From Pseudofabraea citricarpa (Eukaryota; Ascomycota; Leotiomycetes; Helotiales; Dermateaceae), in the NCBI GenBank assembly GCA_029641185.1, contig JAPWGK010000028.1:372001-436000 (forward strand): a DNA stretch of 64,000 nucleotides. Direction: 5' to 3'. A program made the translations under genes and the position numbers. This document shows, piece by piece, positions 39,510 to 43,517 of the stretch. The notes beneath the pieces were generated by a model, which saw only the letters and a program-made list of their open reading frames with translations, was not told where the DNA came from and made no database searches. How positions within the stretch are numbered: position 1 is the stretch's first letter; each line of letters begins with the position of its first letter.

Positions 39510-41995
39510 ATGGCGCCTGCAGATGTCTTGAGCCCGGCAGGCAGTGCTACCTACGACTCGAATACCATGTACGTGGGCGACGGAACCTGGGACTCGACGA
39601 GGAATGACTTCCTCCTGCCAAACATTATGGGGTTGAATTTTGACACGATGCGTTATAATGGTAGGTGTTTCTCCTGCCAGAGATGATACGTAGACTGACT
39701 GGCGTAGGCATGGGGAACCGATTCAAAGATATGCCCGGATACTACACACTAGTTCTCGGGCATGGAATTCTCGCAGCGATGACTTTCCTTTTCGTTGTTC
39801 CGGCGGCCATCATTATTGCTCGGTTCTACGGCCGAAATCCAAGATGGGCTTTGCGGCTGCATATTTATTTACAGGTTCTAAATGTTGGGTTGACGACGGT
39901 GTTGTTCGTACTAGGATGGTTTGCTGTCGGTTCACGACGAAGTCTAACGAACCCACATCACGGAATTGGAGTGGCAATCTACGTTCTTGTTCTCGTCCAG
40001 GCGGTGGGTGGTGCATGGATACACCGAAGAGAAAAGGGAAAGATCATTCGAAAGCTACCAGTGAAGCTAGTCCTGCATCAGTGGTTCGGGCGCACAATTG
40101 CTTTGCTTGGAATTGCACAGGTTCCCATCGGTCTTACTTTATACGGCGCACCCAAATACTTATTTATTCTATATGCCCTGTGGATGGCATTTCTCGTCTT
40201 GTTATACTTCATCCTCTCTTATAGAGCAACCGCACCAATCGGTGGCCTCATCCGAGAGGAGAGCCACCATGGGGAGACAGTTCTCACAGAAAGAAGTCGA
40301 AGTAGACTTGGTGGAATTGCAGCACCACTAGCCGCTGGGGCAGGGCTGGCGGCACTGCTCGGGAGAAACCGCAATCGAAGCAGAAGCAGAAGTAGAAGTC
40401 GAGATCGTGTTGAAGAAGTCATACCATCGAGAAGAGGGTCGCGAACGGGATCTAGGGTGGGATCACGCCGAGGATCGTCGAGCTTCATTGAAAAGGAGGA
40501 GTATGATGAGCGAAAGAAGAGCGGCGGCATGATGGACAAATTGCTCAAAGGTGCCGCTGTTCTTGGTGTTGGGGCTCTCGCAAAGAGTTGGTTCGATCGG
40601 AGAAAGATGAGAAAGGAAGAAGATGAATACTCTTCGGTGGAGGGTGACACACCAAGTAGAATCCGCCATCCAAGAAGGCACAACGAGAGCGAGTTTAGCG
40701 AGGATAGTCTTTCAGTCCACAGAATGGAGGAAGCCAGACCATCTCGCTCAAATATCCTTCCTGGTCCAACTCCACTGACTGAAACTGCCATAACCACCGA
40801 CACTCGACCTGTCACTCCGCGACCTCTTGGAGACCGAAGAGATAGCTATGATTCGTTGGACTACTCATCAACAATGAGTCCTTCAAGAAGACCACAATCT
40901 GGACATGGAGCTCGGAACGGGGTCTTGGCTGGTATTGGTCTTGGCTGGTTCGCAAAGATGATGAAGGACAGGAGAGATGCAAAAGAGCAGAGGAGAGCTG
41001 AAAAGGAGGAGCTCCGCATACATCAAGAGAGGTTGGCGAGAAAGGGCACTAAGGGAGCTCGCTATACTGGTGATGGCTTCACTACTGGTCGCCATAACCG
41101 AAGAAGCTCCCGAACTGAATCTTCAGAGCTGTCTACCATCCTCACCAACCCACATCAAGCAAATAGCTCTATTCCGGCAGTTCCCGTGCCTATTGGACCA
41201 GCTGGTTCCACCATTATTCAATCACATTCTCGACACGATGTTACGGAACCTGTGGAAATGCCCCATGCACCACCTGATCCTCATGGCATCTTACACCAAG
41301 ATTCCGAATTAGAAAGTGAAGCATATGTTTCCGGCGGTGGAACTCATCGCCGACGATCAGCTCGACGACGAGCTGAAGGAGAAGCTGCTGCTGCTGCGGC
41401 CGCCGCATCTGGATTGGCTGCGGCTGAGGAGGAGAAAAGAAGAAGAGAACGTTCTCGTTCTCATGGCAAGAGTGCCGTGTCTAGTCCTCCGGTTAGCGTG
41501 AAGGTCAAAGTTCACGGTGACAAGGACAGAAACGTGACCTTGCGACGCTTGACACAAGAAGAGGCGGCAGCAGAACGTGCAGCACGAAGAGGACAACGAC
41601 GCAGAAGAGCAGAGTCTGTGAGCAGTATGAGTGGTACTGACACCGTAGCATCTCGCAGAAAATATCGCCGAGATGCATCCCAAGTCAGAGACGATGAGAT
41701 CAGGGCAGAGAAGGAGGCAGAGGCTTTGACTGAAGCTGGTCCTCCTGTTATGGCTCCACTCTCACCACCAGATCCACCATATGCTGGGGGGAAGAAGCCA
41801 AAGGACTCAGCATACTACTCTGGGGGGCGCCCATTACCATCAACTACGAGTGTTGGTAGTCATGGAACGTGGAGTGAGATGAGTCCTAGTGGCGTTGGTG
41901 CTGGAAGTGGTCAAGAAGATCCAGCGGAGCGGAGGAGGAGGAGACGGATGGAAAGGAACCAGAGGCAGGCTACGGGAACAGTTGACTTTTCTTAG
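39510..41995 (+). CDS. Cytochrome b561-domain protein with long charged, Arg/Ser-rich tail
   Basis: Exons 39510-39661 and 39709-41995 give 812 aa; a phase-1 intron splits a Gly codon. Residues about 60-220 form a b561-type membrane domain with five or six helices and the expected histidines: His69 (LGHGIL), His102 (LRLHIYL), His134/135 (NPHHGIG) and His174 (LHQWFGR), likely ligands of two b hemes. Such domains transfer electrons across membranes. From about residue 240 onward the protein is cytosolic and low-complexity: an SRSRSRSR run near 275-283, many KR/E-rich stretches, an Ala run, and repeated GLGWFAKMM-like hydrophobic patches. The upstream in-frame start is not ATG. This layout (b561 plus a very long disordered tail) recurs in filamentous ascomycetes, from memory; the tail's role is unknown. 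Confidence 0.85.
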
Positions 41996-42376: not shown

Positions 42377-43517
42377 ATGTCTTCGAACGCAGCTGACGAT
42401 AGCACCACTGCCGCTCCTTCAGCCCCCGAAGGCGACTCCAAACTCGAGCAGTTGAACATCAAGATCTCGGACAACCAAAACGAAGTATGGTTCAAGGTAA
42501 AGCCACACACGAAAGTGAGCAAGATGTGCAAGGCGTGGTGCGATCGCAACGGACAGGCACTGAGCACAGTGCGGTTCCTGTTCGATGGCGTGCGCATTGT
42601 GCTCGATGGAAATGACGACAATGCTACTGCAGCCAGTGTACGGCTCTTCCCTCCCCTCCCATTCCCGTTGGAAGTAATTACTAATTTGATTTGACCATCA
42701 CAGCTGGGCATGGAGGACCAAGACTCTATTGAGGTCTTCCGCGAACAGCAAGGTGGTGCTACGCCTACGCCCACTGAGCCTGAGCCTGAGAATGTTCATG
42801 AAGCTTCTCCTAGTCCTCCCCCAAAAGCTCCCATCGCAATGACGCCTGGTCCCCGCGCGGCTGCTTTCACGACGCTGTACGAGAAGACGCTTTCTCATAC
42901 CATTGATGCGATCACGTACGATAACTTCGCCGACTGCTTTCCCAGCATCGCAGAGAATGCGCCTGAGACTTTGAAGTATATGCACGAGACGATGCAGGGA
43001 GCGTTGAAGCAGAAGAACAAGGTACGTTTCCATTTGAATTGTTGACATATCTGTCGTCTCTAGGAGAGACTAAGTAGAGGAATAAAGGAGCTAATATGTA
43101 TGGCAAATACAGAGTCAATTCGACACCCTCGTACAAGAACGCAACGTCATCGCGAACCTCAACTCGCTGGAGGATCTCATCAACGATGCGAAGCGCCGCA
43201 AGGCTCGCTCAACCGACGATACCATCCCGCCTACAGCACCACACCTGCTCCCCGCGCCCGTCGTAGAATCCGCCCACCTCGCCTCTCTGTACGCATCGCA
43301 ACAATCCCAACTCAACGCGAAGCTCCAAACGGTAGCGAGCCAGAACGCGACTCTGGCCGACAAGATCAGTGCTCAGAAGCAAGAGATCGAGAAATTGGTC
43401 CGGAGCGTCGAGGCTGTGGTTGGCGACCTGGATAAGACGAATGAGGCGTTGGCTGATGTGGATGCTCTGGCTAAGGACGCTCGGAAAGCCGAGGCGGAAT
43501 TGATGGAGATCGCCTGA
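42377..43517 (+). CDS. SUMO-Nnf1 fusion protein
   Basis: Three exons (42377-42637, 42704-43021, 43113-43517), all phase 0, encode 327 aa. Residues about 23-105 are a SUMO/Smt3 domain: LNIKISDNQNEVWFKVK, LSTVRFLFDGVRI, LGMEDQDSIEVFREQQGG. It ends in the diglycine at 104-105 (42752-42757), where SUMO proteases cut. The same exon continues without a stop as ATPTPTEPEPEN, then a Pro-rich linker and the Nnf1 kinetochore domain (AAAFTTLYEKTLSHTIDAIT; ALKQKNKSQFDTLVQERNVI; then NLNSLEDLINDAKRRKAR), with a C-terminal coiled coil. Nnf1 belongs to the MIS12/MIND complex. An internal ATG at 42839 (Met133) could give Nnf1 alone. Cleavage after Gly105 would yield mature SUMO plus Nnf1 with a new N-terminal Ala. 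The fusion is direct sequence evidence; cleavage is inference. Confidence 0.9.

What the first reader, a model, noticed from the sequence alone, without database searches (positions are those of the whole stretch)
42377..43517. SUMO fused in frame to the kinetochore protein Nnf1
Exon 2 (42704-43021) runs without a stop from the last third of a SUMO domain, through the diglycine at 42752-42757, into Nnf1. SUMO is normally made with a very short tail removed by a Ulp-type protease at this Gly-Gly. Here the tail is a MIS12/MIND kinetochore subunit, the layout of ubiquitin-ribosomal protein fusions. If cut, one transcript supplies SUMO and Nnf1 at 1:1; if not cut, SUMO is tethered to the kinetochore. 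I do not know whether this fusion has been described; it could be lineage-wide or a lone case.
Basis: partly seen in the sequence, partly recalled or inferred. Interest (0 to 1): 0.9.

Follow-up and report, generated by a model that had tools for sequence, protein, structure and literature searches.

The report
Diverged SUMO fused to kinetochore Nnf1
In a group of fungi the gene for an essential chromosome-segregation protein begins with a built-in, fast-evolving copy of the protein tag SUMO that still carries SUMO's cutting site, a SUMO counterpart of the ubiquitin-ribosomal protein fusions.

Summary
Exons 42377-42637, 42704-43021 and 43113-43517 read as one 327-residue protein: a SUMO fold ending EQQGG, a linker, then Nnf1. 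It is the only Nnf1 match in the 44-Mb fungal assembly. It is neither a lone case nor an assembly error: Phlyctema vagabunda and Coleophoma crateriformis (both Dermateaceae) encode the same architecture; the other 159 listed Nnf1 relatives lack SUMO. The three fused Nnf1s form one clade, 100/99.

The "supplies SUMO" reading is weakened. A separate canonical SUMO gene exists. The fused copy is 51% identical to it, whereas 119 fungal SUMOs are 83-99% identical to it. The ubiquitin of this genome's Ub-eS31 fusion is unchanged (72 of 72). Yet the fused SUMO keeps EQxGG and the arginine that yeast Ulp1 grips, in 3 of 3.

Best reading (0.58): a SUMO counterpart of FUBI-eS30, a dedicated, diverged, probably Ulp1-removed N-terminal SUMO that helps make Nnf1 or times its assembly. 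Main rival (0.27): a permanent SUMO on Nnf1. Splicing, expression and cutting are inferred, not shown.

The parts
42377..42637 (+). Exon 1: start codon, N-terminal tail and first two thirds of the SUMO domain (residues 1-87)
   Evidence: Translation and splice model; Pfam Rad60-SLD begins at residue 26 = 42452
42638..42703 (+). Intron 1, 66 b, GT-AG, phase 0; same position and phase as the first intron of the canonical SUMO gene in L005
   Evidence: inferred, no RNA
42704..43021 (+). Exon 2: end of SUMO, diglycine, linker and first part of Nnf1 (residues 88-193) in one open frame
42752..42757 (+). Gly104-Gly105, the SUMO-type diglycine; predicted cut after 42757, next residue Ala
   Evidence: EQxGG kept in 3 of 3 fusions; cutting is inferred
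42758..42841 (+). Linker of about 28 residues (ATPTPTEPEPENVHEASPSPPPKAPIAM); from HEASPSPPP on it resembles the natural N-terminus of unfused Nnf1s
   Evidence: in the Phlyctema model a low-confidence stretch 97-115 starts at the GG
43022..43112 (+). Intron 2, 91 b, GT-AG, phase 0
   Evidence: the metagenome protein P0037 looks read through an intron at about the same Nnf1 place
43113..43517 (+). Exon 3: rest of Nnf1 (residues 194-327) and stop codon
   Evidence: only Nnf1 match in the assembly

Best explanation
A duplicated SUMO gene was joined in frame to the start of the single-copy Nnf1 gene, probably once, before Phlyctema and Coleophoma split (inferred from one Nnf1 clade, the shared SUMO intron position and the separate canonical SUMO). 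One mRNA makes a SUMO-linker-Nnf1 precursor (inferred). The SUMO part is no longer interchangeable in sequence with the cell's SUMO but keeps the fold, the EQxGG tail and the arginine that Ulp1 grips (shown by sequence). Most likely Ulp1 cuts after the diglycine, leaving Nnf1 with an N-terminal Ala or Ser (inferred). Before the cut the SUMO acts in cis as a folding aid and/or as a bulky cap at the head-1 end of the MIND complex that delays docking to Mif2/CENP-C and Ame1 (inferred). It works like FUBI-eS30, with SUMO in place of FUBI, Ulp1 in place of USP36 and a kinetochore subunit in place of a ribosomal protein.
For: One open frame in three species; single Nnf1 match in the assembly; one Nnf1 clade 100/99. 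The fused SUMOs are 32-51% identical to the own canonical SUMO and 37-47% to each other, against 82.7-98.7% for 119 canonical SUMOs, so the fused copy does not behave like the pool. The EQxGG positions are kept 4 of 4 in all three fusions, against 13 of 39 other invariant positions (p 0.019). R41 (Smt3 Arg64, numbering recalled) is kept in 3 of 3; Ulp1 Asp451 makes an essential salt bridge with it (passages of PMC3216068). A Ulp1 with the W-L-N-D motif and the H, D and C of the active site in register is in the genome (L012). The Phlyctema model has a SUMO fold and a low-confidence stretch from the GG onward. Internal contrast: the Rad60-type SUMO-like domain of this genome ends without GG. 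Precedents: Smt3 fused before eL40 in yeast is mostly cut and raises eL40 (PMC6721733); FUBI, 36% identical to ubiquitin, is cut from eS30 (PMC8354635).
Against: Only three sequences, and the grouping of the tail positions was chosen after seeing the data; with H69 counted as tail, p is 0.07. 26 of 43 canonical invariants are not kept in all three, and the Phlyctema SUMO is so diverged (32%) that Ulp1 may not recognise it. The SUMO-domain tree did not join the three fused SUMOs. Smt3-eL40 was cut less efficiently than ubiquitin-eL40 in yeast. No RNA, protein or cutting data.
Confidence: 0.58

Rival explanations
1. Permanent SUMO: the fusion is not cut, or only in part. Nnf1 is a constitutively SUMO-bearing MIND subunit that recruits SUMO-binding partners (for example SUMO-targeted ubiquitin ligases or passenger proteins) at the inner face of the kinetochore.
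For: Two residues of the SUMO-peptide binding groove (F14, K15; groove assignment recalled) are kept in 3 of 3. About 17% (10 of 64) of tested yeast kinetochore and spindle proteins are sumoylated, including the MIND subunit Dsn1 (passages of PMC3527468). The SUMO has diverged as an integral domain might.
Against: The EQxGG tail is kept in 3 of 3, while the integral Rad60-type domain of this genome lacks GG. Yeast Nnf1 itself was among the non-sumoylated proteins in that study.
Confidence: 0.27
2. Second SUMO isoform: the fusion is cut and the released SUMO is itself conjugated to targets, so that the gene supplies a special SUMO and Nnf1 at 1:1.
For: Fold and GG are kept.
Against: Strong divergence between species and from the canonical SUMO; a canonical SUMO gene exists; the ubiquitin in this genome's Ub-eS31 is unchanged (72 of 72).
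Confidence: 0.09
3. Two transcripts: a separate promoter or alternative start makes Nnf1 without SUMO (for example from the ATG at 42839-42841 region), and the fused form is minor.
For: An in-frame Met lies just before the TPGPRA motif; no RNA evidence is held to exclude it.
Against: That Met would drop the SPSPPP stretch kept in the fused proteins and in the unfused Nnf1s read out. The SUMO frame is open and aligned over its length in three species. Reading through intron 1 ends the SUMO before its last strand and without GG, so no intact SUMO is made alone.
Confidence: 0.04
4. Artefact of assembly or of gene prediction that joins two genes.
For: No RNA evidence is held.
Against: Exon 2 runs uninterrupted from SUMO into Nnf1; the same joint occurs in proteins of two other species.
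Confidence: 0.02

Closest known systems
FUBI-eS30 (FAU) precursor of animals
   Same: Diverged ubiquitin-family domain with kept diglycine in front of an essential protein made only as a fusion; FUBI is 36% identical to ubiquitin and is cut off by USP36 (PMC8354635)
   Different: Here the domain is of the SUMO family, the partner is a kinetochore subunit, and cutting is not shown
Ubiquitin-eS31 and ubiquitin-eL40 precursors
   Same: Same layout; the Ub-eS31 gene of this genome also has Ala after GG
   Different: Their ubiquitin stays identical to the pool (72 of 72 for Ub-eS31 here); the fused SUMO does not (51%)
Engineered Smt3-S-eL40 in yeast
   Same: SUMO as N-terminal partner, mostly cut in vivo, raises yield (PMC6721733)
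   Different: Man-made, with the ordinary Smt3; here natural and diverged
Integral SUMO-like domain proteins (Rad60, Esc2, NIP45; names recalled)
   Same: A SUMO-like domain is part of a larger protein; one is present in this genome
   Different: That domain ends the protein, without GG; here it is N-terminal with GG
Unfused Nnf1 of other Helotiales
   Same: Nnf1 part alike, for example P0003 60% identical; similar SPSPPP and TPGPRA start region
   Different: No SUMO in any of the 159 other listed Nnf1 proteins (one chance-level match at E 0.39)

Membership tests
SUMO family | SUMO-like beta-grasp domain | tested here: met
   Pfam Rad60-SLD 52 bits, cut-off 23.8; model of the Phlyctema relative matches SUMO1 and Smt3 in the PDB
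SUMO family | C-terminal diglycine of the domain | tested here: met
   Present in 3 of 3 fusions
SUMO family | Processing and conjugation to other proteins | not testable with these tools
   Needs biochemistry
Nnf1 family | Nnf1 domain of Pfam PF03980 | tested here: met
   87.7 bits, cut-off 23.7; only match in the assembly
Ubiquitin-family carboxyl-extension precursors | N-terminal ubiquitin-like domain, diglycine, then an unrelated complete protein in one frame | tested here: met
Ubiquitin-family carboxyl-extension precursors | Cut after the diglycine | not testable with these tools
   Inferred from kept EQxGG and a Ulp1 gene
Ubiquitin-family carboxyl-extension precursors that feed a common pool (Ub-eS31, Ub-eL40) | The domain is identical to the free modifier | tested here: not met
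   38 of 75 core positions identical to the own canonical SUMO
Integral SUMO-like domain proteins (Rad60 type) | No diglycine after the last strand | tested here: not met
   GG present; absent in the Rad60-type protein of this genome

The most novel reading that the evidence does not exclude
A family of fungi has put assembly of its kinetochore under SUMO-protease control: every Nnf1 molecule is born capped by a dedicated, no longer interchangeable SUMO that Ulp1 must remove before the head-1 end of MIND can dock to Mif2 and Ame1, so that Ulp1 licenses kinetochore assembly. This would be a SUMO-based FUBI-eS30 system outside the ribosome.
Probability: 0.25. Interest if true: 0.85.

Novelty: new variant of a known kind. 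Interest (0 to 1): 0.68.

Why it matters
It is a natural SUMO-headed fusion with an essential non-ribosomal partner, shared by a fungal lineage although no unfused Nnf1 was found in this assembly. It makes testable whether an N-terminal ubiquitin-like domain is a general in-cis chaperone or assembly timer, or one only for ribosomal proteins. It is also a natural experiment on what a SUMO needs for protease recognition (tail and Arg64 kept) as opposed to its other duties (much of the rest changed), and a possible direct link between SUMO proteases and kinetochore assembly.

Tried and rejected
Rejected: assembly or gene-model artefact (same joint in proteins of two other species); lone case; this locus as the only SUMO gene (canonical gene on contig 43); a second Nnf1 in the assembly (one match; the search works exon by exon, so a copy in very short exons could be missed).

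Led nowhere: the SUMO-domain tree (29 rows, 28 different, 75 columns, very long branches) put Coleophoma apart from the other two and cannot date the SUMO part; this speaks against, or at least does not support, a single origin of the SUMO half. The search for the SUMO E1 subunit Uba2 by PF16195 found nothing here or in any of 14 controls, so it says nothing. A paper search for Smt3-Ulp1 contact residues gave none. Poly-SUMO proteins P0007, P0104 and P0105 came up but are not Nnf1 fusions. Of the 7 Peptidase_C48 matches in the genome I read out 3 (L010, L011, L012).

In print: six of my ten full-text searches of the open PMC library were aimed at a natural SUMO or SUMO-Nnf1 fusion (20 of 56, 15 of 19, 15 of 20, 7 of 7, 1 of 1 and 3 of 3 papers listed); none of the listed titles or abstract beginnings reports one. 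One search asked for the two named species (10 of 80 listed). Most subscription journals are not held, and papers beyond the lists were not seen.

Limits: the protein searches listed 103 of 103 hits, 120 of 238 and 120 of 1694, and scored only candidates within a length range, so a rarer fusion or a free relative of the fused SUMO may have been missed. One of the 120 proteins dropped out of the 119-row comparison by that script's conditions (GG present, length at most 136). No DNA of the two relatives was at hand, so their introns, dN/dS and unfused copies could not be checked.

Full report
Observation. The window lies in a 44-Mb assembly of 43 contigs (window = C21:372001-436000), fungal by its genes. 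The + strand gene at 42377-43517 has three exons (42377-42637, 42704-43021, 43113-43517), GT-AG introns of 66 and 91 bases, both phase 0, and encodes 327 residues. Pfam finds a SUMO-like domain (Rad60-SLD, residues 26-98, E 6.4e-14) and Nnf1 (175-282, E 8e-25) in one chain. Gly104-Gly105 are encoded at 42752-42757 and followed by ATPTPTEPEPENVHEASPSPPPKAPIAMTPGPRAAAF.

Gene content of the genome. Nnf1 has one match, this gene. The Rad60-SLD search gave 12 matches: four in polyubiquitin, one in Ub-eS31 (GG followed by AKKRKKK), one further ubiquitin exon, the window gene, a Rad60-type protein whose SUMO-like domain ends the protein without GG, three weaker ubiquitin-like frames without an EQxGG tail in the frames shown, and one canonical SUMO gene on contig 43. 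The canonical gene encodes 99 residues ending IGGA, with introns after residue 80 (phase 0) and one base after the GG codons. Its first intron and that of the window gene fall at the same alignment position and phase, which supports origin of the fused SUMO from a SUMO gene copy.

Distribution. A search with the fusion against about 5.8 billion clustered proteins gave 103 hits. Two carry both domains: Phlyctema vagabunda P0001 (59% identity over 95%) and Coleophoma crateriformis P0002 (52% over 94%). One (P0007) is a SUMO repeat protein and 100 have Nnf1 without SUMO. A profile search of the three gave 238, of which 120 were listed; the only rows with both domains were again these two. A SUMO profile run over all 164 distinct listed proteins hit P0001, P0002 and the three poly-SUMO proteins strongly, and one Nnf1 protein (P0046) at chance level, E 0.39; the other 158 Nnf1 proteins gave nothing at E up to 1. 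Both species are Dermateaceae. In a 39-row Nnf1 tree the three fused rows are one clade at 100/99, the window sister to Phlyctema at 100/96, apart from Mollisia, Acephala, Cadophora, Oculimacula, Drepanopeziza, Sclerotinia, Hyaloscypha, Chlorociboria and others. The fusion is thus probably at least as old as the Phlyctema-Coleophoma split. Unfused Nnf1s P0008, P0106 and P0107 (organisms unnamed) have HEASPSPPP close to their natural start, so the end of the linker looks like the old Nnf1 N-terminus.

The fused SUMO is not ordinary SUMO. Over 75 core positions, 119 fungal-type SUMOs (119 of the 120 listed) are 82.7-98.7% identical to the canonical SUMO of this genome, median 90.7. The fused copies are 50.7% (window), 48.0% (Coleophoma) and 32.0% (Phlyctema) identical to it and 37.3-46.7% to each other. 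As an internal control, the ubiquitin of Ub-eS31 here is identical to polyubiquitin over 72 of 72 residues. A modifier that joins a common pool stays uniform; this one has not.

What is kept. Of 43 positions that are at least 99% invariant in the canonical SUMOs, 17 are kept in all three fused copies. E71, Q72, G74 and G75 (the EQxGG tail) are kept 4 of 4, the others 13 of 39 (Fisher one-sided p 0.019; p 0.07 when H69 is counted with the tail; the grouping was chosen after seeing the data). R41, which corresponds to Smt3 Arg64 (numbering recalled), is kept in 3 of 3; Ulp1 Asp451 forms an essential salt bridge with it (passages of PMC3216068). Locus L012 encodes a Ulp1 that matches 6dg4 (E 2.7e-45) and yeast Ulp1 1euv (E 9.9e-23), with W-L-N-D and the H, D and C motifs of the active site in register. 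I16V, R18P and L66I are shared by all three fused SUMOs against the canonical ones, in line with common descent; but Pro at the place of R18 also occurs in a repeat of the poly-SUMO proteins, and a SUMO tree did not group the three and warned of long branches.

Structure. AlphaFold2 on the Phlyctema protein (32-row alignment) gives mean pLDDT 84 and pTM 0.35 (the placing of the two halves is not predicted): a beta-grasp domain (strands 23-28, 33-38, 62-66, 69-71, 88-93; helix 44-55), a low-confidence stretch at 97-115 that begins with the GG (97-98), then long Nnf1 helices. Foldseek against the PDB returns SUMO1 and Smt3 structures at the top, among them SENP- and Ulp1-bound forms (50 best shown). 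By sequence, fission yeast Nnf1 (5wwl) matches residues 139-300. The diglycine is thus predicted to be reachable.

Mechanism. Shown by sequence: one open frame, a SUMO fold, GG, and no other Nnf1 match in the assembly. Inferred: splicing, translation as a precursor, cutting by Ulp1, in-cis help for Nnf1. Two precedents make this reasonable. In yeast, replacing ubiquitin by Smt3 in front of eL40 gave mostly cut protein, near-normal eL40 levels and less aggregation, and partly restored growth, though cutting was less efficient than with ubiquitin (abstract and passages of PMC6721733). FUBI, 36% identical to ubiquitin with GG kept, is cut from eS30 by USP36, and uncut FUBI disturbs 40S maturation (abstract and passages of PMC8354635). 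In budding yeast, Nnf1 1-114 with Mtw1 1-115 forms head 1, where Mif2 and Ame1 dock and where Dsn1 auto-inhibits (passages of PMC13065467). An uncut N-terminal SUMO would sit at that end, so its removal could license assembly; this is the boldest form of the idea.

The rival is a permanent SUMO on Nnf1. Two residues of the SUMO-peptide groove (F14, K15; assignment recalled) are kept, and kinetochore and spindle proteins are enriched among yeast SUMO targets, Dsn1 among them but not Nnf1 (passages of PMC3527468). The kept GG speaks against it, as the uncut Rad60-type domain here lacks GG. With three sequences the choice cannot be settled; I put 0.58 on the cut precursor and 0.27 on permanent SUMO.

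Novelty. Ubiquitin-like precursor fusions are a known kind, and ubiquitin fusions to further partners are described in algae (abstract of PMC6332867). A natural SUMO-headed fusion with a kinetochore subunit was not among the papers listed by six searches aimed at it. I call it a new variant of a known kind.

Noticed in passing
P0104, P0105, P0007 (metagenome proteins): Tandem poly-SUMO proteins with four strong SUMO domains each, most ending EQxGG or like it, separated by short linkers: SUMO polyproteins laid out like polyubiquitin, organisms unnamed.
   Followed up: partly
L010 (C39) and L011 (C9): Two long genes with a split Peptidase_C48 domain that look like two Ulp2-type SUMO proteases (name recalled), besides the Ulp1-like gene in L012.
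   Followed up: no
P0189 and P0206: Two different SUMO proteins are both named as from Phialocephala subalpina, so SUMO duplication occurs elsewhere in Helotiales.
   Followed up: no
P0006: A Chlorociboria protein of 474 residues joins an unrelated, secreted-looking part to Nnf1; probably a merged gene model.
   Followed up: no
window 39665-41995, + strand: Open frame of 776 residues upstream of the fusion, with a cytochrome b561-like N-terminal part (E 1.5e-4, just under Pfam's cut-off) and a long basic, serine-rich tail.
   Followed up: partly
L005 1783-1892: The canonical SUMO gene has an intron one base after the diglycine codons, so that its last codon is split off from the mature part.
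   Followed up: no
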